Source: Terasakiella brassicae (GTDB lineage: Bacteria > Pseudomonadota > Alphaproteobacteria > Rhodospirillales > Terasakiellaceae). From it: a stretch of DNA of 64,000 nt. A model generated the notes under the pieces. The model searched no databases. It was not told the DNA's origin and saw only the letters and a program-made list of their open reading frames with translations. Positions 29,165 through 64,000 of the stretch are shown here, piece by piece. Position numbers and translations under genes: made by a program. The DNA lies in NCBI RefSeq assembly GCF_014641495.1, contig NZ_BMHV01000015.1, forward strand, positions 1 to 64,000. Reading direction: 5' to 3'. Every line of letters begins with the position of its first letter. Position 1 is the stretch's first letter.

Positions 29165-29240
29165 TGGCGACCCCTACGGGACTCGAACCCGTGTTGCCGC
29201 CGTGAAAGGGCGGTGTCCTAGGCCACTAGACGAAGGGGTC
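29165..29240 (-). tRNA. tRNA-Glu (UUC)
   Basis: A complete 76-base cloverleaf on the minus strand: acceptor GACCCCT/AGGGGTC with encoded CCA, anticodon stem CCGCC/GGCGG with loop CTTTCAC giving anticodon UUC, and T-loop GTTCGAGTC. It is the second of two identical copies. Confidence 0.95.
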
Positions 29241-29264
29241 ATATTCATTTTTTTACCAACGGGA

Positions 29265-29340
29265 TGGCGACCCCTACGGGACTCGAACCCGTGTTGCCGC
29301 CGTGAAAGGGCGGTGTCCTAGGCCACTAGACGAAGGGGTC
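29265..29340 (-). tRNA. tRNA-Glu (UUC), duplicate copy
   Basis: Identical to the neighbouring copy over the full 76 bases and exactly 100 bases away, with 24 bases between the genes. The pair is probably transcribed together from the promoter upstream of this copy. Confidence 0.95.
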
Positions 29341-53830: not shown

Positions 53831-54694
53831 ATGCTTCTGCCTCGTTTCTCCGTTTTGTGGGTCGGCATACGCCCCAAAACATTATCCATGTCGCTAACGC
53901 CGATACTTGTCGCCTTCAGCCTTGCCCTCCACAATCAGCAGCCTCCGAATTATCTTGTCTTGCTTGCAATCTGCATCGGTGCAATTTCCATCCAGATTGC
54001 GACCAATTTGTTTAATGATGCACAGGATTTTTTAAACGGAACAGATACAGGCACCCGCATTGGCCCCCAACGCATTACACAGGCCGGTCTTGCAACACCG
54101 TCTCAAACCCGATATAGCGCCTTCCTCTTTATCGCGATTGCTGCATTTTGCGGTTTATATCTGATTAGCATTGGCGGCTGGATTATCATGCTATGTGGCG
54201 GATTAGCCTTGCTCTGTGCATATATCTATTCCAACGGTCCCTTCCCTATTTCGCGCGGTCCCTTTGGGGAAGTGTTTGTTATGCTCTTTTTTGGCATAGC
54301 CGCCTTTAATGTCAGTTATTTTCTTTTGGCAAACCACTGGCCTGCAAATGGCTTGATATATGGGATCGCAATCGGCTGTCCGGCTTGTGCAATTTTATTG
54401 TTAAATAATTATCGTGATCTGGAAAACGACACCCTTGCAGGCAGAAAGACTCTTGCCATTTACCTAGGGAGCAAAGCTTCAAAAGTCGTTTTCGCATTGC
54501 TTATGCTTGCCCCTTATGTCCTACTCCTTACCCTGCCTGTTCCCTTATGGTTTTTCGCAGGCATTCCGCTGGCAATTCTCGCAACTTTCAAAATCTTTAC
54601 CATCACGCACAAGGTAGAACTGAACGCCAATCTTGGCATTTCTGCAGCCAGCCAGATTTTACTGTGTATCGGTCTTGCCATCAGCCTGATGTAA
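53831..54694 (+). CDS. menA: MenA-like UbiA-family prenyltransferase
   Basis: 287 residues with about nine transmembrane helices. Both Asp-rich motifs are visible: NLFNDAQDFLNGTDT (NDxxD type) and LNNYRDLENDTLAGRKTL, the latter typical of MenA, which attaches an isoprenoid tail to 1,4-dihydroxy-2-naphthoate in menaquinone synthesis. The neighbouring hyb operon uses menaquinone in characterised systems, so co-location is plausible. No other men genes are present; other UbiA-type roles remain possible. Confidence 0.82.
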   Translation: MLLPRFSVLWVGIRPKTLSMSLTPILVAFSLALHNQQPPNYLVLLAICIGAISIQIATNLFNDAQDFLNGTDTGTRIGPQRITQAGLATPSQTRYSAFLFIAIAAFCGLYLISIGGWIIMLCGGLALLCAYIYSNGPFPISRGPFGEVFVMLFFGIAAFNVSYFLLANHWPANGLIYGIAIGCPACAILLLNNYRDLENDTLAGRKTLAIYLGSKASKVVFALLMLAPYVLLLTLPVPLWFFAGIPLAILATFKIFTITHKVELNANLGISAASQILLCIGLAISLM

Positions 54695-54700
54695 AATTGA

Positions 54701-54740
54701 AAAAGGCATTCCGACCTGAATCGAAATGCCTTTATTCTTT
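54701..54740 (+). terminator. menA terminator
   Basis: AAAGGCATT pairs with AATGCCTTT across a 14-base loop, followed by ATTCTTTATT. Confidence 0.75.
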
Positions 54741-54773
54741 ATTCCCTGAATAAACAAGGAATACAGGTTGAGA

Positions 54774-54980
54774 TTAGTCAACCAGTTTGATGTCAGACGC
54801 CGCTTCTTTGCCACGGCTTACAGAAATCTCGAAAGAAACTTTCTGCCCATCATTCAGTTGCTGAATACCAGACTCGTGCAATGCTGAAATGTGAACAAAA
54901 ACGTCTTTGCCGCCTTGTTCCGGTTCGATGAAGCCATAACCTTTTGTGGCGTTAAACCACTTAACTGTACCGTTAGCCAT
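54774..54980 (-). CDS. cspA: Cold-shock protein CspA-type
   Basis: 68 residues, a typical single cold-shock domain with both RNA-binding motifs: KGYGFI (RNP1) and DVFVHIS (RNP2). It binds single-stranded nucleic acids as an RNA chaperone. The long 5' leader has an inverted repeat (next entry). It converges with menA. Confidence 0.93.
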
Positions 54981-55033
54981 TAATCTTTAGTCCTTAGGAT
55001 GTTTTATAGTCTGCCCCCCTTTCAAGGGACGTA

Positions 55034-55076
55034 TTGAGTTCGAAGAAAGTCTGAGATGGTGTCTTGGAGAACTCAA
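55034..55076 (-). promoter_or_regulatory. Stem-loop in the cspA leader
   Basis: TTGAGTTC and GAACTCAA form an 8-base perfect stem across 27 bases, 54 to 96 bases ahead of the cspA start. Cold-shock genes are often controlled by leader structures; a role as such is an inference. Confidence 0.4.
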
Positions 55077-55266
55077 GGAACAAATAGAATTATCCTTCGG
55101 AAAAAAAGGAGTGGCCCTAAAAGGTTCGGCTTAAGGTCTATATTCTACCCCATAACGAGCAAAAAACGTAACTCACGAGTAAACTGTATGTGAGTTTAAA
55201 AATAAAAGCAATTCATATTCTATTACAATATTTTCTCAGTTACGTTTCAGTAATCGAACGCAAAGA

Positions 55267-55587
55267 TCATAGCTCTAATTCACCCGGTGAAACGGCGGCA
55301 CGGCGCTCTTCATTCAAGGCCAGAACCTTAATTTTTCCATTGGCAATTTTAAAAGAATCATAGCCAAAATCAAAAGCCAGACTCATAAGGGTATTGACCA
55401 CTTCCATATCACTGTTGCGGAATTTATCATTTTGCACCCAATGGTTTGCAATAGACTGCACAACCATTTGCTCAACCGTTATTTGATTGGATTTTGCCTT
55501 GTCAACCAATGCCTTCAGCGTCCATTCACTGATAACCTGATCATTGATAACGATTTTTTTCTTATTAATACGGATGAATTTTGCCAT
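55267..55587 (-). CDS. 106-residue protein of unknown family, linked to the CofD-like gene
   Basis: Begins MAKFIRINKKKIVINDQ, soluble and mixed helix-strand, with SEWTLKALVDKAKSN and VVQSIANHWVQNDK helices and an acidic-hydrophobic C-terminus (SPGELEL). No signal peptide, Cys or recognised motif. It lies 51 bases downstream of the CofD-like gene on the same strand and is probably co-transcribed with it, which makes it a candidate new member of the adjacent gene system. Function unknown. Confidence 0.65.
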   Translation of the reverse strand: MAKFIRINKKKIVINDQVISEWTLKALVDKAKSNQITVEQMVVQSIANHWVQNDKFRNSDMEVVNTLMSLAFDFGYDSFKIANGKIKVLALNEERRAAVSPGELEL

Positions 55588-55638
55588 TGCCCTGCTCTGG
55601 ATATTAAAATGTTATTTCATCCAGACAGGAATACACCA

Positions 55639-56832
55639 TCACGTCAAAGACAACAATGCCGTAACCAACAACTGCGGATCATAATAAGGGGCACTCTGCG
55701 GTGCCACCAAACGCGTGTCTATCAAAGAAATTTTTTCTTTTCGCAACTTTGCTTTGGTTTCAGGCAGCAGGTTTTGACCATTCTCACTATCAATAAACAC
55801 ATGCGTCATAAACGTGGATGCGGGGGTATCCTCACCCGTATCCAAGCAAAGATATTCAATTAATTTAAAAATAGAATCATCCATTGAAAGTCCGATTCTT
55901 TCCGGGTCGTCCCCCAAACTCGGCACATAAACCTTTGGACATTTCTTTCGTGCAATCGCCTGCCCCACCCCTTTGGGAAGGAGATTGGCAATAATGCTTG
56001 TATAAAAGCTTCCTGGTGGAAAACAGATTAAATCCGCATCATCGATAAACCGCTTTTTCTTCTTCGAAATTTGCGCCGTTGTACGCTTCTGTGTTTTCAA
56101 ATCTTTTACAAGGAAAAGCTCATCCAACGCCTTATCAATCTTACAAACTTCCTTGCCGGTAATCATATGTTGCCCATAGATCACCTGCCCATCTTCCAAA
56201 CGTGCGGCTAAATGCAGGGTATCGTTCACAATTGTTGTTACCTCACCCAACACATTCACCAGTTTCGAAAACATAAAAATAACCGGATCCATCTGTTTTC
56301 GATGATTAAGATATCCTGCTGACAAAATCAGATTGCCAATACTGGCACCTCTCAAATCAAAATCATCAGGCATAGCATCTAGAAACATAGATAAATGTGT
56401 TCTAATCAATCTGCGCATAGGCTGCTTAATCGCGGCAACCTGCGGATCCTTTCCACTCGCCATCGCCTGAAGTTGCATCAACAGATCCTTGCGCCTAGCC
56501 TCTTTGGGCAAACGATGCGCAAATAGGCTAAAGATTTCAGGGCTACCACTGATGCGTTCATCCGCCAGCGCCATCATGCGTGATCGCATATCGCCAATTG
56601 CGGGCATATCAAATGCTTTTCGTAAAATAGCCGAGCTTCCCCCGCTATCAAAGGGTGTCACCAAATGAATGGAATTATGTGTGAATTTTTTGAGAATGCG
56701 ACTGGTTTCCGTCAGCGCCGTCCCCCCTGAAAAAAACAATACACGCGGCCCGTATTCAGGTGCTTTTTCATATCGTGCCGCACGCAGCATATCGGGCATA
56801 GTCACGGTGCGAGAAACTGTTGTTTTTTTCAT
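55639..56832 (-). CDS. GAK-type CofD-like protein
   Basis: 397 residues. An N-terminal FFSGGTALTE loop and THNSIHLVTPFDSGGSSAILRKAF are typical of the CofD/YvcK fold, which binds a nucleotide-linked phosphate donor; the RGASIGNLILSAGYLNHRK segment is the second family block. True CofD transfers phospholactate in F420 synthesis, but no F420 genes are here, and relatives in this branch occur with an ATP-grasp/HprK-like cluster that fits the divergent operon. The donor and acceptor are unknown. ATG start; it diverges from the PhoU/APH fusion over 281 bases. Confidence 0.82.
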   Translation of the reverse strand: MKKTTVSRTVTMPDMLRAARYEKAPEYGPRVLFFSGGTALTETSRILKKFTHNSIHLVTPFDSGGSSAILRKAFDMPAIGDMRSRMMALADERISGSPEIFSLFAHRLPKEARRKDLLMQLQAMASGKDPQVAAIKQPMRRLIRTHLSMFLDAMPDDFDLRGASIGNLILSAGYLNHRKQMDPVIFMFSKLVNVLGEVTTIVNDTLHLAARLEDGQVIYGQHMITGKEVCKIDKALDELFLVKDLKTQKRTTAQISKKKKRFIDDADLICFPPGSFYTSIIANLLPKGVGQAIARKKCPKVYVPSLGDDPERIGLSMDDSIFKLIEYLCLDTGEDTPASTFMTHVFIDSENGQNLLPETKAKLRKEKISLIDTRLVAPQSAPYYDPQLLVTALLSLT

Positions 56833-57113
56833 ATCGTCCCAAAAATAATAGATCTTTTATGATATAATGCGAAGCGTTGCTTCAAAGGTCCAGAAGATTA
56901 TTGTTAAACTTCAAAGGAAGGATAAACGGATTGCTTTTGATTAAATTTCACATTTTCGCGGACCGTCACAGAATTGAAACACAAATGACGCAAAATGCGG
57001 CTCGCTTACATCCCCCCACTGAACTCAAAAAAAAATTGAAACCCATCTCCATATTTCATTCGCTCTTTCTTCCTTATTGTTTTCGCTGAAACATCCGACC
57101 TGCAGATATAATT
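56833..57113. promoter_or_regulatory. Shared control region of the CofD-like gene and the GAK operon
   Basis: 281 AT-rich bases between divergent starts. TATAAT occurs about 30 bases from the CofD-like start and again just before the PhoU/APH start. CGTCA and TGACG lie 17 bases apart as an inverted repeat near its middle. A 70-codon frame here is not supported. Confidence 0.5.
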
Positions 57114-58739
57114 ATGCATTTACCCAAATCCATTCACGATAACCTGCATTTCCTGTTGGCTGAAACCCAGTCGCAGGTGAACAACCTTCTTGTTCTGCTG
57201 GAAACCGCATCGCAAACGGTTTCCCAACGCATTCTGGATCGCCAAGGCTATACCTACAACTTGAAAATGCGCGTCCATGATGGATGTTTGGACACCTTGC
57301 GTCATGGCAAAAAAGGTAACGTAAATATCTATTCTTTAAGAGCTGCCGAAGCCATCGCATCTGATTTGGAACGTATCACCGATCTGTGTCACGAATGCGT
57401 CCGTCTGATGGCAAATTTATCCAGACGTGATGCTCTTAAAAAAAGTGATAATGCCGCCCTTTTATCCAAGATAGATAAAGGGATTGCCCTGATTGAGCAT
57501 GCCATAGAAGAAGATGACACGCGCCTAGCCCTAAAAATCGGCAATATTGAACGAGAATTGGGTCGCGCCTACGAACGTGTTTTCAAAAAACATCTCAAAA
57601 CCTTATCCAAGCAAAAAAATCCTGAAGATGCCTTAACATCCTTGTTTGTTTCCCAACGGATTGAGGAAATGGGCGACATTCTTTTAAGCATTTCTGAATC
57701 GATCATGTCGGCAAAGCTTGGTCAACCCATGCATATTGATCGTTTTCGCTCTCTTAAAACAGCCTTATCCGATCTTGGTCTTTTGAATGCAGATGTCGAA
57801 ACCATTGCAGAAACAAAATCCGGCAGCGCAATTGCAGGTATCAGCGCAAGTAATGGTGAGGAAAATGGCTATCTGGCCATTTTTAAAGACGGCAAAAAAG
57901 AAAAACTGAAAGAAGAATTGGAAAGCGTCGAAAGCTGGCATGAAATTTATCCCGGTCTGGCCCCGCAAATTTTGTCATATAAAAAACAAGGGAAAAATGC
58001 GGCCCTTCTGATTGAACATCTTCCCGGTCTGACTTTTGAACAAGTCCTGCTGCAAGAACATGATGATGTCGTTGAAAAAGCTCTCAAACGACTGAGTAAA
58101 ACCTTAAAGGCGGTTTGGAACGAAACAAAAAAGAAAAAGAAGATTCCGGCCAACCATATGGCACAACTCAAAAAACGCTTAAAGTCCGTTTTGGATATCC
58201 ATCCAGACTTCCAAACATCCTCAGTTAAAATTGGTTCGCAAAAAGTTATTTCTCTGGATGATTTGATTGCACAGGCTGCACAAATTGAAAAAGAACTGGC
58301 CCCTCCATTCTCTGTTTATATTCATGGAGATTTTAATCTGGATAACATCATCTTCGACCCTGAAAATCAAACCATCAAATTTATCGACCTGCACCGTTCA
58401 TGTTATCAGGATTACACACAGGACATATCCGTTTTCATGGTGTCAAATTATCGCTTGCAAGTCTTGGACAACAGAACACGCAGTCGGATTAAAACCAGCG
58501 CCCTTTATCTACATTCTTACGCAAAAGAATTTGCCCGCAAAAACAATGATGAAACGTTCGAGCTTCGCCTCGCTTTGGGTTTGGCCCGTTCCTTCATTAC
58601 ATCCACCCGTTTTATTTTGGACAAAGGCCTTGCCAACGCCATGTACCTGCGCGCGGTCTATATTTTGGAAAATATTCAGGCATGCCCGAAAAAACATATA
58701 AAGAAATTTAAATTGCCGATTGAGGATCTCTTCACATGA
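57114..58739 (+). CDS. PhoU-like domain fused to an APH-type kinase
   Basis: 541 residues. Residues about 10-215 form two helical bundles like PhoU (HDGCLDTLRHGKKGNVNIYSL, DLERITDLCHECVRLM and RIEEMGDILLSISES blocks). Residues about 240-510 form an aminoglycoside-phosphotransferase-type kinase: HGDFNLDNIIFD (catalytic Asp406) and FIDLHR (metal-binding Asp). PhoU senses or gates phosphate; APH-like enzymes phosphorylate small molecules or proteins. The fusion is uncommon. First gene of the operon; its last codons overlap the next start by four bases. Substrate unknown. Confidence 0.8.
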   Translation: MHLPKSIHDNLHFLLAETQSQVNNLLVLLETASQTVSQRILDRQGYTYNLKMRVHDGCLDTLRHGKKGNVNIYSLRAAEAIASDLERITDLCHECVRLMANLSRRDALKKSDNAALLSKIDKGIALIEHAIEEDDTRLALKIGNIERELGRAYERVFKKHLKTLSKQKNPEDALTSLFVSQRIEEMGDILLSISESIMSAKLGQPMHIDRFRSLKTALSDLGLLNADVETIAETKSGSAIAGISASNGEENGYLAIFKDGKKEKLKEELESVESWHEIYPGLAPQILSYKKQGKNAALLIEHLPGLTFEQVLLQEHDDVVEKALKRLSKTLKAVWNETKKKKKIPANHMAQLKKRLKSVLDIHPDFQTSSVKIGSQKVISLDDLIAQAAQIEKELAPPFSVYIHGDFNLDNIIFDPENQTIKFIDLHRSCYQDYTQDISVFMVSNYRLQVLDNRTRSRIKTSALYLHSYAKEFARKNNDETFELRLALGLARSFITSTRFILDKGLANAMYLRAVYILENIQACPKKHIKKFKLPIEDLFT

Positions 58740-59626
58740 TTCATAAAAAAATTGCCGTCATCGGAATACCGGGTAAGTGGTCAACCGAAGTGCTTGCGGA
58801 CCGATTAGAAGAGAAAACAGGATTTCGTCTGGTTATATCTATGGCCGATGTCCATGCGGACCTTTCAACAAACTCCCTTTATGCACAAGGTGTGAACCTT
58901 TGTCAGTTAGACGGCATAATCGTAAAAAAAATCAGCCAAACCTATAATCCCAATACACTGGATCGTATTGAATTGCTGCGTTTGGCTGAAAAAAATGGTG
59001 TGCGCGTCTTTTCAAAACCCGACACCATTATTCGAATGATCGATCGCCTGGGCTGTACCATGACATTGCGCAACGGGGACATTCCCATGCCGGCGACACG
59101 TATCAGCGAAGACATTGATTACGCCCTACAAACCGTTCACGATTTCGGTGCAGCCGTTTTCAAACCCCTTTATTCAACAAAAGCCCGTGGCATGTGCGTT
59201 ATTGAAAGCAATCAATCTGATGATCAAATTCTAAATCAGATTACAGAATTTAAACGCGATAATCCGATGATGTATATACAAGAAAAAGTCGAACTCGCGG
59301 GTCAAGATTACGGAATGGTCTTTCTAGGCGGGGATTATATGGGCACATATGCCCGCATTTCCCAAAACGACAGTTGGAATACGACCATTAACAGCGGCGG
59401 CAAATATGCCCCGCATACCCCATCGCAAAGCACAATAGAACTTGCCAGCAAAGCGCAAGCCCTTTTCGGAATGGATTTCACCACCGTTGATGTGGCCGAT
59501 ACCAAAGACGGCCCCATTATTTTTGAAGTTTCCGCATTTGGTGGTTTTAAAGGCGCGAAGGAAGGTATCGGAATTGATGCCGCCAATCTTTATGCCGATT
59601 ATGCGTTAAAGGAGCTCAGCCAATGA
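58736..59626 (+). CDS. GAK-type ATP-grasp enzyme, RimK-like
   Basis: 296 residues of ATP-grasp fold: the FKPLYSTKARGM loop binds the phosphate of ATP and the C-terminal IIFEVSAFGGFKG holds the metal. In RimK the matching segment is EVN; here Asn is Ser, which is a family variation or a loss of one ligand. ATP-grasp enzymes link a carboxylate to an amine or phosphorylate small molecules. Overlaps both neighbours by four bases. The substrate and partner are unknown. Confidence 0.82.
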   Translation: MIHKKIAVIGIPGKWSTEVLADRLEEKTGFRLVISMADVHADLSTNSLYAQGVNLCQLDGIIVKKISQTYNPNTLDRIELLRLAEKNGVRVFSKPDTIIRMIDRLGCTMTLRNGDIPMPATRISEDIDYALQTVHDFGAAVFKPLYSTKARGMCVIESNQSDDQILNQITEFKRDNPMMYIQEKVELAGQDYGMVFLGGDYMGTYARISQNDSWNTTINSGGKYAPHTPSQSTIELASKAQALFGMDFTTVDVADTKDGPIIFEVSAFGGFKGAKEGIGIDAANLYADYALKELSQ

Positions 59627-60696
59627 TCACCCTGCAAAACATTGCACACCGTATGCAAAGTGGCTTTCCCTTATGTGATGGCGAAGTTTTGTTGGATTTA
59701 GATGGCTATAAAATCGCTATTCAATCCAACAGCGAAGAACTGTTGGAAAAACTAGGCATTTATTTCGCTCATACCTTAGGTCACGGTAGCGCTGATATTG
59801 TCGTCAAGGCCATTCAACGCCCACAAGACACTTATGATTTGACCTTCACAGACTGGAAGCGCGAACCCGGCAAAACCGGACGCAAAGATGCCTACGTCGA
59901 TATTGAACAGGCACGCATCATTCAAAAAGTGCGCACAAGCATGGTCTTTTTACAAAGTCAGAGCGAACGTATTGCCGCTGGCCCTTGTCTTGAAAATGAT
60001 AATCAGGTGATTAATTTCATCAATGCACAATATATGAACCACCTGCAACAAAACGGTGCGCTCATTTGCCATGCATCCGGTCTTTGTGCCCGTGAAAAAG
60101 GCCTAGGAATTGCCGGGTTCTCCGGTGGTGGAAAATCTACATTGATGCTCCATTTGTTAAGTAGCGATAATGTTCAATACCTGACAAATGACCGGTTGTT
60201 TTTAAAAGCAGGCTCTGCCATTGGCATACCGAAACTACCACGTGTTAATCCCGGTACCATGTTGCATGATCCAAACCTGATCGATCTTCTCCCTGCCGAA
60301 AGGATCAAAGCTTTAAAAGCGCTTCCCCCGTCTGAATTATGGGATTTGGAAGAAAAATATGACGTCTTTGTTGAAGATATTTATGGCCCAAATAAAATCA
60401 TCGACCATGCAACACTCAATGCTTTCCTTATTCTCAACTGGAAACGCGAGAGTGAAGTCCCCTGCACGATACAAGAAATCAATATTGAAGAACATGTCGA
60501 CCTTTTAAAAGCTGTTATAAAATCGCCCGGTCCCTTCTATCAGGATGTAAATGCAAATTTCATTTCACAAGATATGCATCAAGATAGCCTCGCCTATCTA
60601 AATGCGCTTAAGAATGTTAGAATATATGAAGCCAGCGGGAAGATTGATTTCACTTATGCGAAGGATTTTTGCCTTCAACATCTCTTGATGGAATAG
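59623..60696 (+). CDS. HprK-related kinase B
   Basis: 357 residues. The central P-loop GFSGGGKST (Lys171) and the following LTNDR motif match HPr kinase/phosphorylase, with an N-terminal half unlike HprK. HprK phosphorylates HPr on a serine; no HPr or PTS gene is nearby, so the target is probably another protein or a small molecule. It is tightly coupled to its neighbours (four-base overlap before, one-base gap after). The family is known as a member of GAK-type clusters, to my recollection. Confidence 0.82.
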   Translation: MITLQNIAHRMQSGFPLCDGEVLLDLDGYKIAIQSNSEELLEKLGIYFAHTLGHGSADIVVKAIQRPQDTYDLTFTDWKREPGKTGRKDAYVDIEQARIIQKVRTSMVFLQSQSERIAAGPCLENDNQVINFINAQYMNHLQQNGALICHASGLCAREKGLGIAGFSGGGKSTLMLHLLSSDNVQYLTNDRLFLKAGSAIGIPKLPRVNPGTMLHDPNLIDLLPAERIKALKALPPSELWDLEEKYDVFVEDIYGPNKIIDHATLNAFLILNWKRESEVPCTIQEINIEEHVDLLKAVIKSPGPFYQDVNANFISQDMHQDSLAYLNALKNVRIYEASGKIDFTYAKDFCLQHLLME

Positions 60697-60697
60697 G

Positions 60698-61657
60698 ATG
60701 AAGACGATGGTCAAAAACCTGTTACTCTTGCGACATGGGCATACAAAAAACACACACCCGGAAGGTGATTTTTATCGCGAGTTAAAAAACAAAGGGAAAC
60801 GCAATGCTCAGCGTATCGGTGTTTGGTTGCAGGAAAACAACTTGCAACCGGAATTGATCCTTGCCTCCCCTGCCGAACGGGCACGTACCACAGCCGCAAA
60901 ATCCTGCAAATCGGCCGGATTATCCACACAGATCATCGCCAATGTGCCGCGCCTTTATAACGCCGCGCCGATTGATTTACGCGGTGCCATCGCAAAGACA
61001 CCCAATAGTGTTGAATGCCTTATGGTCGTGGCCCATAACCCCGGTCTATCCATGCTGGTTGGACAACTGAGCAATCATTACTTGGCAATGGCCCCGGCGA
61101 CCTTGGTTCACCTGCAATTTGACGGAAGTTGGAAAGATATTTCACGCTGCCATTGCACCAATATTATTGAAGGGGCAAGCCTGCCTGAAACCTTTCCTTT
61201 TAATGGTTCGGGCGGTACTGAACAACGCATACGCCCTGCCTATTATTACAATCAAACCGGCGTTGTTCCCTATCGGATTGTTGATAGCGAACTTCAAATT
61301 TTGCTCATTTCATCCAGCAGTGGTAAACATTGGGTCATACCCAAAGGCATTCACGACCCCGGTATGAATGCGCAAGAAAGCGCCGAAAATGAAGCACGCG
61401 AAGAAGCCGGTGTGAAAGGTCTTGTCGCAGATTTTCTTTTAGGGCGTTACAGCTACGAAAAATGGGACGCGACCTGCGATGTACAGATTTTTCCAATGGC
61501 TGTCACCCATGAACTTGCGCCACACGAATGGGAAGAAAGTCATCGCCTGAGAAAATGGGTTTCCCTTGCGGCTGCAATTGAATTGGTGAATACCCCTGCC
61601 CTCGCTGACATCATAGGCAAGCTCCCTGCTTATCTGGAAGGCATTCAGCATGACTAA
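60698..61657 (+). CDS. SixA-like histidine phosphatase fused to a Nudix domain
   Basis: 319 residues. Residues 1-150 are an RHG-type phosphatase (LLRHGH, His13 nucleophile; VVAHNPG second His), closest to SixA. Residues about 175-315 are a Nudix domain in which the first Glu is Met and the Arg is Asn, but the EEAG core remains (PKGIHDPGM then NEAREEAGV). MutT1-type proteins of mycobacteria have the same two domains in the opposite order. It would remove phosphate from phosphohistidine or an organic phosphate and hydrolyse a diphosphate. The next start overlaps it by eight bases. Confidence 0.82.
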   Translation: MKTMVKNLLLLRHGHTKNTHPEGDFYRELKNKGKRNAQRIGVWLQENNLQPELILASPAERARTTAAKSCKSAGLSTQIIANVPRLYNAAPIDLRGAIAKTPNSVECLMVVAHNPGLSMLVGQLSNHYLAMAPATLVHLQFDGSWKDISRCHCTNIIEGASLPETFPFNGSGGTEQRIRPAYYYNQTGVVPYRIVDSELQILLISSSSGKHWVIPKGIHDPGMNAQESAENEAREEAGVKGLVADFLLGRYSYEKWDATCDVQIFPMAVTHELAPHEWEESHRLRKWVSLAAAIELVNTPALADIIGKLPAYLEGIQHD

Positions 61658-62345
61658 CCCTGTTGCTATCCTCCTTCGACATGGTGATTATCACCAGTTA
61701 AACGACACCCCCAGCGCGTTACAACCTTTCCCGCTGAATGAACAGGGTTTCTTACAGGCACAAGATGCAGTTGGCTTGCTTAAGGGCTTTGCCGATCAAT
61801 ATAATTGGCAATTGGATCCGGTTATTGAATGTTCCAGTCAGCTCCGTGCATGGCAAACCGCAGACGTCATATGCGAGGCACTGGATTGTTTTGACGATAT
61901 AAAAAGCAGTGATCATTTAAGCGAACGCCAATTGGGGAGTGCCGCAAACCTAACCGTTAAACAGATCGAACAAGTGCTTAATGTCGATCCACGTTTTGAG
62001 AACCCACCTGCCGATTGGAAGTCAAACTCACATTACCGCCTTCCCTTGCAAGGTGCTGAATCGTTGATGGAGGCTGGCGAACGTGTGGCCAATCATATCA
62101 AACTCGTCTTAAACCACCTTCCCCTGAACACTTCTGACAAGCCAATCGCCAAGCTATTTGTTGGTCATGGCGCTGCCTTTCGACATGCAGCGCATCTCCT
62201 TGGCATATTGACGTTTGAAGATATAGCCAAACTGAGTATGTACCACGCCAAACCTGTTATTTTATCCTATGATGAGAATGGCACATGGTTTCACGTATGT
62301 GGAGAATGGAAAATCCGCCAACAAAAAGAAGAATATTCGGATTAA
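61650..62345 (+). CDS. Histidine phosphatase-family protein
   Basis: 231 residues: LLRHGDY (His11 nucleophile), CSSQLRAWQTA, and a C-terminal FVGHGAAFRH (acid/His), all active-site motifs of the superfamily. Its closest look is to phosphoglycerate-mutase-like phosphatases. A second such enzyme directly behind a SixA-type one suggests two dephosphorylation steps or two targets. It overlaps the preceding gene by eight bases. Confidence 0.85.
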   Translation: MTNPVAILLRHGDYHQLNDTPSALQPFPLNEQGFLQAQDAVGLLKGFADQYNWQLDPVIECSSQLRAWQTADVICEALDCFDDIKSSDHLSERQLGSAANLTVKQIEQVLNVDPRFENPPADWKSNSHYRLPLQGAESLMEAGERVANHIKLVLNHLPLNTSDKPIAKLFVGHGAAFRHAAHLLGILTFEDIAKLSMYHAKPVILSYDENGTWFHVCGEWKIRQQKEEYSD

Positions 62346-62350
62346 AGACA

Positions 62351-63721
62351 ATGCATCAACATTCTAAACATGCTCTCCTACCACGCTATCATGGCAAATC
62401 CTGGCTCAATGTCCGTCTGCCACGCAAAACCGTCGAATGGTGTGAAGGTGGTGCAAAATCTCTTGCACATGATTGTACCGACGAAAAGTCCCTGATGACG
62501 ACTTTAAAAGAGCTAAATAAAACAAATGCATGGGTTTGGCCCAAACGAAAACATATTTTTCTGTCCGACCTGCATGGCGACCCCGATGCTTTTGCCGCCT
62601 CGTTGGTCTTATCCGGTTGCATTAAAAAAAACGGACCAAAGCCCACTGATTTTTCTTTGAATGAAAGTGGGCGTAAAGCTAACTTTATCATCGGTGGTGA
62701 TTGTTTTGATAAAGGGCCAAGCAGCCTCGGATTATTACGGACAATTCGCCATCTAAAAGACCAAGGCGCGCGCGTTCGCGTCCTTGCGGGAAATCACGAT
62801 GTTCGGGTTCTATTTGGTATGCAGGCCATCGGAAAACATAAAACACCGAAAAATGAACATTTTTTCATTCGCACCGGGCAAAAAATAATTCCGTTACTCA
62901 AAGAAATCTGGACCGAATACTTACAGGAAGCAGATTCACTGAAACATATCCCAAATAAACGCACGTGTAAAAAAATGCTCTATCCATCGCGGGAATGGTT
63001 CAATCGTTTCCCCGATCTTGCAGAACCACACTTAATTTCGCATCAAATTGAACGTGAACTCACCCGCATCAGGAAAAAGTACGATACTTTCGAAGATAAA
63101 TGTGAAAAAGCAGGATTGAACTTACGTCAGGTTTATGCCGCTGCCCTCAAATGGCAAGAGTTATTTTTATTACCGAAAGGGGAATTCCATTGGTTTTACA
63201 AACAAATGCGCCTTGCCTTTAAGTCTGGTTCGTTTCTGTTTATTCATGCCGGCTTAGATAACAAAGTGGCTGAACAACTATCAGGCATTGGCGTCAAAGA
63301 TTTAAATCGAATATTTAAGCAGGCCCTTCAAGGCGCCCCTTTCGATTTTTATTACAGTCCCTTATGCAACACAGTGCGAACAAAATATAGAAATGTGGAT
63401 CATCCCTTTACAAACAAAGGGGCACGGCATGTCCGGCGTGCAGGTATAAGTGCGATTATTCATGGGCATCGAAATTTACATTCAGGCCAACGGATTGCCC
63501 TTCGTAAAGGTGTGCTCAATTTTGAATGTGATGCAAGTTTAGATAGTCATACCCGTCGCAACGAAAAAATACGCGGACGCGGTGCCGCTGTCACCATTAT
63601 CCATCCCAAAGGGAAAATATTGGGTTTATCCAGCGATTATCCGCATATCAAGCTATTTGCACCGCACAGCACTTTATTGCATTTACAGAAAAAACACGCA
63701 AAGAGAAAGACCAAACAATGA
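62351..63721 (+). CDS. PPP-like calcineurin-type metallophosphatase
   Basis: About 456 residues. The PPP set is intact: LSDLHGD (Asp73, His75), GGDCFDKGP, AGNHDVR, FIHAGLD and HGHRN. A large insert between the third and fourth motifs (about residues 165-300), rich in Lys and Arg, is unusual. It would act on phosphoprotein or a small phosphomonoester. I start at the ATG five bases behind the previous stop; the frame is open 66 bases further upstream but that part overlaps the preceding gene. Overlaps the next start by four bases. Confidence 0.85.
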   Translation: MHQHSKHALLPRYHGKSWLNVRLPRKTVEWCEGGAKSLAHDCTDEKSLMTTLKELNKTNAWVWPKRKHIFLSDLHGDPDAFAASLVLSGCIKKNGPKPTDFSLNESGRKANFIIGGDCFDKGPSSLGLLRTIRHLKDQGARVRVLAGNHDVRVLFGMQAIGKHKTPKNEHFFIRTGQKIIPLLKEIWTEYLQEADSLKHIPNKRTCKKMLYPSREWFNRFPDLAEPHLISHQIERELTRIRKKYDTFEDKCEKAGLNLRQVYAAALKWQELFLLPKGEFHWFYKQMRLAFKSGSFLFIHAGLDNKVAEQLSGIGVKDLNRIFKQALQGAPFDFYYSPLCNTVRTKYRNVDHPFTNKGARHVRRAGISAIIHGHRNLHSGQRIALRKGVLNFECDASLDSHTRRNEKIRGRGAAVTIIHPKGKILGLSSDYPHIKLFAPHSTLLHLQKKHAKRKTKQ

Positions 63722-63987
63722 AAGATGATCAAAGATTTAAACATGAATCTTTGCAGGATTCAAAAACGATTGCCACGCTCCTAAACGCACTGACAAACGC
63801 GATTTCAGATGGAAAAATTGTCATGGAAGATGGCAACGCCTCATTAACGATGGAACCTAAAGGTTTATTGCACCTTAAACTTTCCGCCTCAAAAGAAGAT
63901 AACCAAAACCGCCTAAACATTAAAATCTCGTGGCAAGGGGAAACCAAGATTGAAAGTGGGAAAAATATTAAAATCTCAGGTAGATAA
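63718..63987 (+). CDS. Amphi-Trp domain protein
   Basis: 89 residues of the small amphi-Trp type: a helix (SKTIATLLNALTNAISDG) followed by three strands ending LNIKISWQGETK, with the characteristic single Trp in an amphipathic strand. The family occurs with CofD-like and HprK-related proteins in GAK-type clusters. It is too small for catalysis and may be a carrier or an adaptor. Four-base overlap with the metallophosphatase; the operon may continue beyond the window. Confidence 0.8.
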   Translation: MKDDQRFKHESLQDSKTIATLLNALTNAISDGKIVMEDGNASLTMEPKGLLHLKLSASKEDNQNRLNIKISWQGETKIESGKNIKISGR

Positions 63988-64000
63988 CCATATAACAAAA

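What the first reader, a model, noticed from the sequence alone, without database searches (positions are those of the whole stretch)
55267..64000. GAK-type gene system: kinase, ATP-grasp, CofD-like and amphi-Trp proteins with four phosphohydrolase domains
Seven genes on the plus strand follow each other with overlaps of 4-8 bases or gaps of 1-5 bases, so they are translationally coupled. They diverge from a CofD-like gene and an orphan gene. Folds seen: PhoU-like/APH kinase, ATP-grasp, HprK-like kinase, SixA-Nudix, histidine phosphatase, PPP metallophosphatase, amphi-Trp. The core set matches, to my recollection, the curated GAK system, whose function is unknown. Inference: a cycle that phosphorylates, ligates and dephosphorylates one target; the set of phosphohydrolases is the richest part. 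ATP-grasp plus histidine phosphatase plus Nudix resembles the enzyme kit of inositol-pyrophosphate turnover in eukaryotes, a speculative analogy.
Basis: partly seen in the sequence, partly recalled or inferred. Interest (0 to 1): 0.92.

Follow-up and report, generated by a model that had tools for sequence, protein, structure and literature searches.

The report
GAK gene cluster, possible phosphate link
This is a complete copy of a catalogued but unstudied bacterial gene set whose enzymes should add and remove phosphate groups and join an amino acid to something unknown; its make-up, and its neighbours in some bacteria, hint at a role in handling phosphate.

Summary
Seven plus-strand genes (57114-63987) overlap by 4-8 bases or lie 1-5 bases apart, divergent from a CofD-like gene. 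Four proteins pass NCBIfam cut-offs for the GAK-set families. In 54 complete loci of 83 dereplicated ones, PhoU-APH kinase, ATP-grasp and HprK-B are present in 54 each, amphi-Trp in 52, PPP in 50, histidine phosphatase in 48, SixA-Nudix in 31, CofD within 9 kb in 27. CofD gave no match in 7 of 12 GAK genomes, so it is optional.

New here: HprK-B is predicted to have the two-domain shape of ATP-PEPCK along its whole length, whereas solved HPr kinases match only its C-terminal half. The ATP-grasp is RimK/LysX/MptN-like, not inositol-kinase-like. The first kinase carries a PhoU domain (43 of 51). CHAD, Na/Pi transporter, PstS, PhoU or PPK genes flank 21 of 71 loci against 2 of 40 control regions, but these families were chosen after the fact, and only 1 of 13 distinct loci of a second set has one. 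Best model: a phosphate-gated phosphorylation-ligation-dephosphorylation cycle on a small carboxylate metabolite. The substrate is unknown.

The parts
57114..58739 (+). PhoU-APH kinase (541 aa): N-terminal PhoU domain, C-terminal aminoglycoside/choline-kinase-type phosphotransferase with invariant HGDFNxDN
   Evidence: Pfam PhoU 1.7e-11 and APH 2.2e-11; APH in 51 of 51 and PhoU in 43 of 51 relatives at E<=0.01; D406, N411, D425 invariant in 51 rows; 54 of 54 complete loci
58736..59626 (+). GAK ATP-grasp ligase (296 aa), RimK/LysX/MptN clade, with EVSAFGG where RimK has EVNASPG
   Evidence: TIGR04356 449 bits, cut-off 300; RimK/LysX structures about 4e-18; motif in 12 of 12 rows
59623..60696 (+). 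HprK-related kinase B (357 aa): HPrK-type P-loop core (H150, GFSGGGKS, NDR) plus an N-terminal domain that together align with ATP-PEPCK
   Evidence: TIGR04355 340 bits, cut-off 200; AF2 pLDDT 95.8; VIA Z 17.6, 301 aligned, rmsd 4.3 to PEPCK against Z 13.8, 133 aligned, rmsd 2.5 to HPrK/P; profile match to short HprK 4.4e-11
60698..61657 (+). SixA-Nudix fusion (319 aa); Nudix half closest to human DIPP structures; optional gene
   Evidence: SixA 3.6e-15, NUDIX 1.9e-8, DIPP 1.4e-7; 31 of 54 loci; three Nudix-box glutamates 48 of 48, RHG histidine of SixA 38 of 48
61650..62345 (+). Histidine phosphatase, branch 1 (231 aa); RHG and second His kept
   Evidence: His_Phos_1 2.7e-16; R10 H11 G12 and H173 in at least 95% of 61 rows; 48 of 54 loci
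62351..63721 (+). PPP-type metallophosphatase (about 456 aa; longest ORF from 62285), weakly like ApaH; full metal-site motif set with DKG in place of DRG
   Evidence: Metallophos 9.8e-8; ApaH 0.0056 in PDB; D95 H97 D139 N170 H171 H321 H395 in at least 95% of 55 rows, numbered from 62285; 50 of 54 loci
63718..63987 (+). Amphi-Trp protein (89 aa) with N-terminal motif FxHESLQD
   Evidence: TIGR04354 67 bits, cut-off 31; 11 of 12 GAK genomes against 8 of 287 others; S11 invariant in 44 rows but Ala in one genus
55639..56832 (-). GAK CofD-like protein (397 aa), divergent; optional
   Evidence: TIGR04357 512 bits, cut-off 340; within 9 kb in 27 of 54 loci; in 5 of 12 GAK genomes
55267..55587 (-). 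106-aa protein of unknown kind, downstream of CofD, found only within the genus; doubtful member
   Evidence: no Pfam or NCBIfam match; none in 91 loci; 5 of 6 genus members, 0 of 34 other relatives
56833..57113 (.). Divergent intergenic region that should hold the promoters of both arms; no Pho-box-like site
   Evidence: best Pho-box score 9 of 14, as in shuffles

Best explanation
The locus is a GAK system. Its near-invariant heart is a PhoU-domain kinase, a RimK-type ATP-grasp ligase, an HprK/PEPCK-type kinase and an amphi-Trp protein, accompanied by phosphohydrolase genes (histidine phosphatase and PPP; SixA-Nudix and a separate Nudix) and sometimes CofD. Shown: gene content, co-conservation, kept catalytic motifs, predicted PEPCK-like overall shape of HprK-B, presence of the PhoU domain. 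Inferred: it runs a phosphorylation-ligation-dephosphorylation cycle on a small metabolite with a carboxylate. HprK-B phosphorylates the small substrate in a closed PEPCK-like cleft; the ATP-grasp forms an amide (probably with glutamate) on its carboxylate; the APH domain adds a second phosphate under control of the PhoU domain, which senses phosphate supply; the phosphohydrolases reset the pool; amphi-Trp binds enzyme or product. The biological role is phosphate or polyphosphate homeostasis. The weakest step is the identity of the substrate.
For: Core counts in 54 complete loci; five of 72,556 plasmids hold the ATP-grasp, and the three opened carry the kinase-ligase-kinase-phosphatases-amphi-Trp run whole. 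HprK-B: PEPCK Z 17.6 over residues 1-357, HPrK/P only over 145-357; Foldseek E 2e-8 against 3e-5. ATP-grasp closest to MptN 1.9e-43 and RimK family 7e-30 and to RimK/LysX structures. PhoU domain in 43 of 51 first kinases. CHAD, Na/Pi transporter, PstS, PPK or PhoU genes in 21 of 71 GAK loci against 2 of 40 control regions. CHAD binds polyphosphate: PMC6537752 (passages). ppk is often followed by Nudix and histidine phosphatase genes: PMC8003754 (passages). Amphi-Trp is unlikely to be a phospho-Ser11 substrate: Ala at that place in 8 of 8 loci of one genus.
Against: The neighbour families were picked because they recurred; in a second set of 13 distinct loci only 1 (L220) had one. PstB-type ABC, histidine kinase, response regulator and GGDEF genes were not clearly enriched. 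No Pho box in the window; 4 of 84 upstream regions reach 12 of 14, against 0.1 expected from shuffles but also 17 of 760 upstream regions of neighbour ORFs. The window's own flanking genes are a sigma-54 regulator, a UbiA prenyltransferase, a cold-shock protein, a GGDEF-EAL protein, SpoVR, DUF444 and PrkA, with one small ORF unmatched, and its genome's one CHAD gene is on another contig. At sequence level HprK-B is nearer to short HprK (4.4e-11) than to PEPCK (1.9e-4, 50 columns around the P-loop), and a shared fold shows no function. No substrate was shown; no residue-level pocket analysis was possible.
Confidence: 0.33

Rival explanations
1. The amphi-Trp protein itself is the target: HprK-B phosphorylates it, the RimK-type ligase adds an amino acid, the phosphatases reverse it, as with HPr, ribosomal S6, LysW carriers or kinase-tailored peptides.
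For: Amphi-Trp is present in 52 of 54 loci and tracks the ATP-grasp (11 of 12 against 8 of 287). GAK versions share FxHESLQD or close variants, the three non-GAK ones read do not; S11 invariant in 44 rows. RimK and LysX modify proteins (recalled). HprK-B core matches HprK.
Against: S11 is Ala in 8 of 8 loci of one genus that keep the kinases; the C-terminus is Lys-rich and not conserved, unlike S6 or LysW (recalled); the PEPCK-like N-domain suggests a closed, small-substrate site.
Confidence: 0.3
2. Polyphosphate turnover proper: the hydrolases are endo- or exopolyphosphatases of the Ddp1 (Nudix) and Ppn2 (PPP) kinds, the rest being control.
For: Nudix half nearest to DIPPs; Ddp1-type Nudix and PPN2 are listed as polyphosphatases in PMC6537752 (passage), and that PPN2 is of PPP type is recalled; CHAD and PPK neighbours.
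Against: Does not explain two kinases, the ligase or amphi-Trp; both Nudix genes absent from 18 of 54 loci; PPP gave only a weak ApaH hit.
Confidence: 0.1
3. Cofactor-tail synthesis like that of F420 or sarcinapterin: a phosphorylated hydroxy acid, CofD transfer and glutamylation.
For: CofD-like protein plus an ATP-grasp whose nearest curated non-GAK family is MptN.
Against: CofD not found in 7 of 12 GAK genomes; does not explain the phosphohydrolases.
Confidence: 0.1
4. A bacterial inositol-pyrophosphate-like kit.
For: Nudix half nearest to DIPPs; histidine phosphatase and ATP-grasp folds present.
Against: ATP-grasp is of the ligase clade with no inositol-kinase match; inositol synthase in 1 of 18 GAK genomes; Nudix optional; an Ap4A hydrolase matches the Nudix half nearly as well.
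Confidence: 0.03
5. Anti-phage defence module.
For: Patchy spread and plasmid copies.
Against: 0 matches for 8 proteins in PADLOC; the 10 neighbour-cluster representatives given to Pfam matched transport, regulatory, phosphate and Nudix/phosphatase families, and defence-type names only as secondary ABC/AAA matches.
Confidence: 0.04

Closest known systems
GAK system (NCBIfam TIGR04354-TIGR04357)
   Same: Four families over curated cut-off, same names in the plasmid records
   Different: No NCBIfam match of the PhoU-APH kinase, histidine phosphatase, PPP or SixA-Nudix protein reaches a curated cut-off, yet the first three are about as constant as the named proteins; XXXCH (TIGR04358) not found in 14 GAK genomes, but that search had no positive control
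ATP-dependent PEPCK
   Same: Whole-length predicted shape of HprK-B
   Different: About 8-14% identity; profile match local to the P-loop region; the genome has a separate PEPCK
HPr kinase/phosphorylase
   Same: C-terminal kinase core, H150, P-loop, NDR
   Different: Solved HPrK/P match only 145-357; DDR is NDR; the genome has a separate short HprK
RimK/LysX/MptN/CofF amino-acid ligases
   Same: ATP-grasp family and alignment over the catalytic half
   Different: EVN motif of RimK is EVS in 12 of 12; gene context
Inositol-pyrophosphate enzyme kit (PPIP5K, DIPP)
   Same: Nudix half nearest to DIPP
   Different: ATP-grasp clade; no inositol synthase in 17 of 18 genomes

Membership tests
GAK system | ATP-grasp enzyme TIGR04356 | tested here: met
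   449 bits, cut-off 300
GAK system | HprK-related kinase B TIGR04355 | tested here: met
   340 bits, cut-off 200
GAK system | amphi-Trp TIGR04354 | tested here: met
   67 bits, cut-off 31
GAK system | CofD-like TIGR04357 | tested here: met
   512 bits, cut-off 340; but optional across genomes
GAK system | XXXCH protein TIGR04358 (link to GAK recalled) | tested here: inconclusive
   0 of 14 genomes, and no control genome rang
GAK system | genes occur together across genomes | tested here: met
   91 loci, 13 distinct further, 54 complete dereplicated loci
HPr kinase/phosphorylase | HPrK P-loop kinase core | tested here: met
HPr kinase/phosphorylase | HPr as substrate | not testable with these tools
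   needs biochemistry
ATP-PEPCK | two-domain fold | tested here: met
   Z 17.6 over 1-357, 301 aligned, rmsd 4.3, on a predicted model
ATP-PEPCK | family-level sequence match | tested here: not met
   profile match only 50 columns around the P-loop; NCBIfam PEPCK 11.6 bits, cut-off 369
RimK-type ligase | ATP-grasp RimK domain | tested here: met
   PF08443 3.5e-15
RimK-type ligase | ExN motif (metal-binding role recalled) | tested here: not met
   EVS in 12 of 12 rows
Inositol-pyrophosphate kit | ATP-grasp of PPIP5K or ITPK type | tested here: not met
   10 PDB sequence matches at 1e-3: nine named as S6-modification, lysine-biosynthesis, glutamate-ligase or RimK proteins, one (3vpb) under another name
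Inositol-pyrophosphate kit | inositol supply (inositol-1-phosphate synthase) | tested here: not met
   1 of 18 GAK genomes; own genome none; uptake from outside not tested
Pho regulon | Pho box upstream | tested here: not met
   window 9 of 14, like shuffles; 4 of 84 regions at 12 or more (consensus recalled)
Anti-phage defence | match to a PADLOC family | tested here: not met
   0 of 8 proteins

The most novel reading that the evidence does not exclude
GAK makes and erases a new phosphorylated, aminoacylated small molecule that reports or buffers phosphate status: a functional bacterial counterpart of inositol pyrophosphates, built from unrelated enzymes (a PEPCK-shaped kinase, a RimK-type ligase, a PhoU-gated APH kinase) and erased by DIPP-like Nudix, histidine and PPP phosphatases, with the amphi-Trp protein as its receptor or carrier.
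Probability: 0.12. Interest if true: 0.85.

Novelty: new member of a known kind. Interest (0 to 1): 0.5.

Why it matters
The GAK families are named in NCBIfam and in public plasmid records, yet no paper using those names turned up in the held library: 'GAK system', 'HprK-related kinase' and 'amphi-Trp' had no hit, and four of the TIGR accessions and two model names had 0 papers. One pattern scan found 496 ATP-grasp relatives in GTDB r220 genomes. Defining the constant core, the PEPCK shape of one kinase and a possible phosphate link gives this untouched unknown direct tests: delete the block and measure polyphosphate and phosphometabolites.

Tried and rejected
Pho-box regulation: not general. 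Phosphorylation of amphi-Trp Ser11 as the main event: set back by Ala in one genus. Mutual exclusion of the two Nudix genes: the opposite holds, they tend to co-occur (22 both, 9 and 5 one, 18 neither; odds ratio 8.8, p 0.0008). 'At least one phosphohydrolase module per locus': 0 of 54 lack both PPP and Nudix, but 4 lack PPP and 18 lack Nudix, so about 1.3 would be expected by chance; no conclusion. Fold of amphi-Trp: no PDB match at E<=0.001 by Foldseek and best VIA Z 3.1, so nothing learned. Inositol route. Defence. RNA element: no Rfam match in 54500-64000. Promoter and terminator patterns: no more than in shuffles. Transfer to planctomycetes: their three copies form one branch next to alphaproteobacterial ones, but the tree is unrooted and needs only one change of label, so transfer is not shown. 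Desulfovibrio alaskensis phosphate-fitness paper PMC5193443: passages read; I could recognise no GAK gene in them. PMC6537752, PMC8003754 and PMC1079889: passages only; other papers: listings only.

The core counts now come (all loci dereplicated together, L296 and L304 added) in place (56 loci: PhoU-APH, ATP-grasp, HprK-B 56 each, PPP 54, amphi-Trp 54, HisPhos 52, SixA-Nudix 29, CofD 27, separate Nudix 26).

Dropped rows: one HprK-B row cut by a contig end (L051) was left out of A2, and one PhoU-APH row (L112) out of A4; A2 and A3 hold only window and genome contigs rows, so the genus with Ala at S11 is not in A3; of 16 new over-cut-off HprK-B genomes, 14 were fetched (G309 and G424 near contig ends were not); conservation counts used rows of at least 80% length; and one search counted only loci with 3.5 kb before and 6.5 kb after the ATP-grasp. 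Five of the nine loci (L299-L303) match L046, L048, L045, L054 and L047 in contig length and were not counted again.


Full report
What is there. The nine ORFs of the finding exist at the stated places. Seven plus-strand genes are packed with overlaps of 4-8 bases or gaps of 1-5 bases (taking ATG 62351 as the PPP start); CofD and a 106-aa ORF diverge. NCBIfam places four proteins above curated cut-offs: GAK CofD 512 bits, GAK ATP-grasp 449, HprK-related kinase B 340, amphi-Trp 67. Pfam adds PhoU and APH in the first kinase, Nudix and His_Phos in the fusion, His_Phos_1 and Metallophos. Genes on either side are a sigma-54-type regulator, a small unmatched ORF, a UbiA prenyltransferase, a cold-shock protein and, beyond the window, a GGDEF-EAL protein, SpoVR, DUF444 and PrkA; none matched a phosphate family.

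Spread. In 299 genomes of the phylum the ATP-grasp passes its cut-off in 12; in 244 genomes of another order HprK-B passes in 20. A scan of GTDB r220 contigs gave 496 confirmed relatives, best 80 kept; by their titles these are mostly Alpha- and Gammaproteobacteria, with some endosymbionts, three Pirellulaceae planctomycetes and one record titled Halobacteria. Five of 72,556 plasmids hold the ATP-grasp; the three opened carry the run from PhoU-APH kinase to amphi-Trp. Of 40 close relatives 9 have HprK-B at 1e-20, including all 6 genus members. By matching contig lengths and scores the genus is probably Terasakiella; this is inference. A tree of 38 ATP-grasp proteins puts the window in a supported set of 10 with Aestuariispira, Terasakiella and other copies that also holds the planctomycete ones (100/99); the tree is unrooted, so transfer is not shown.

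Core and accessories. In 91 loci, many cut by contig ends, PhoU-APH was found in 87, HprK-B in 81, HisPhos in 79, PPP in 72, amphi-Trp in 64, SixA-Nudix in 63 and CofD in 40. In 54 loci complete on both sides, of 83 dereplicated at 85% ATP-grasp identity: PhoU-APH 54, ATP-grasp 54, HprK-B 54, amphi-Trp 52, PPP 50, HisPhos 48, SixA-Nudix 31, CofD within 9 kb 27, a separate upstream Nudix 27. The two Nudix genes tend to occur together. The next GAK gene after the ATP-grasp is HprK-B in 76 of 91 and HisPhos in 13. In L047, L054, L084 and L123 and in L296 (the window's own genus) and L304 SixA-Nudix and amphi-Trp are present with no HisPhos or PPP seen; the pair behaves as a module. CofD is found in only 5 of 12 GAK genomes. 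The constant part is thus two kinases, one ligase and one small protein, and the PhoU-APH kinase, which carries no GAK name, belongs to it.

Enzymes. Catalytic motifs are kept: APH D406/N411/D425, HprK-B H150 and P-loop, HisPhos RHG and H173, the PPP metal site, three Nudix-box glutamates in 48 of 48; the SixA half has another residue at its RHG histidine in 10 of 48 rows. The ATP-grasp is of the RimK/LysX/MptN kind with EVS for EVN in 12 of 12. The Nudix half is nearest to human DIPPs among solved structures (E 1.4e-7), with an Ap4A hydrolase close behind (4.6e-7). The AF2 model of HprK-B (pLDDT 95.8) aligns with ATP-PEPCK from end to end (Z 17.6, 301 residues, rmsd 4.3), whereas HPrK/P structures cover only 145-357 (Z 13.8, 133 residues, rmsd 2.5). 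By sequence its core is nearest to short alphaproteobacterial HprK (4.4e-11); against PEPCK (1.9e-4) and against three long HPrK sequences (1.4e-3) the profile match is weak. That HPr kinase and PEPCK are classed as one kinase family is in print (PMC1079889, passage). I infer a closed cleft and a small substrate.

Amphi-Trp. It is tied to the system: 11 of 12 genomes with the ATP-grasp over cut-off, 8 of 287 without (p 2.5e-14); one of those 8, the incomplete genome G184, has a GAK-type sequence. GAK versions start FxHESLQD or close to it; the three non-GAK sequences read have FxDKG instead (the remaining non-GAK matches were not read). S11 is invariant in 44 aligned rows, which would suit a phospho-site, but all 8 loci of genus f56/g114 have Ala there and keep the kinases. 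Its model (pLDDT 84) has no clear relative of known fold.

Phosphate link. Recurrent neighbours outside the block include CHAD, Na/Pi cotransporter, PstS, PhoU, PPK and ParA-like proteins. In 71 dereplicated loci (641 kb of flank) against 40 control regions (800 kb) from three GAK genomes: CHAD 13 against 1, Na/Pi 9 against 0, PstS 6 against 0, PhoU 4 against 0, PPK 4 against 1, ParA 10 against 0, CorC-type 9 against 2; but PstB-type ABC 12 against 16, histidine kinase 10 against 8, GGDEF 7 against 11, response regulator 7 against 8. Loci with at least one of CHAD, Na/Pi, PstS, PPK, PhoU: 21 of 71 against 2 of 40, p 0.0016; in loci of 18 kb or more 12 of 39, p 0.003. The families were chosen after seeing the loci. 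In a second set of 14 loci, 13 of them distinct since L224 is the same contig as L076, only one new locus (L220) had one, so the link holds in some lineages only or is partly a selection effect. The PhoU domain inside the first kinase (43 of 51) is the lineage-independent hint. A Streptomyces study reports that Nudix and histidine phosphatase genes are among the commonest genes after ppk (PMC8003754, passage). Pho boxes are not general.

Reading. Best model (0.33): a phosphate-gated phosphorylation-ligation-dephosphorylation cycle on a small carboxylate metabolite. The closest rival (0.3) is that amphi-Trp itself is modified. The inositol-pyrophosphate analogy fails on the ATP-grasp clade, on inositol synthase in 1 of 18 genomes and on dispensable Nudix genes, though a functional parallel is not excluded.

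Novelty. The system is catalogued; no paper using its names was found in the held library. The window adds a full member; the analysis adds a redefined core, the PEPCK-like shape and a tentative phosphate role.

Noticed in passing
   Followed up: partly
L032 4003-11711 (same contig, just beyond the window's end): After the block come a PAS-GGDEF-EAL protein and, on the other strand, SpoVR, DUF444 (YeaH, name recalled) and PrkA, a stress-kinase gene trio.
   Followed up: partly
L086, L089 and L096: PhoU-APH (L086, L096) and SixA-Nudix (L086, L089) read as two ORFs each, which may be decay or assembly error.
   Followed up: no
L037, L039, L049, L050, L056, L061, L063, L067, L080, L085, L120, L123: A ParA-like ATPase recurs in 12 GAK loci, and all 12 also carry CHAD (of 15 CHAD loci); L037 and L120 are one record held twice. 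Perhaps a polyphosphate-granule positioning pair.
   Followed up: partly
window 29165-29340: Two tandem tRNA-Glu (TTC) genes on the minus strand.
   Followed up: no
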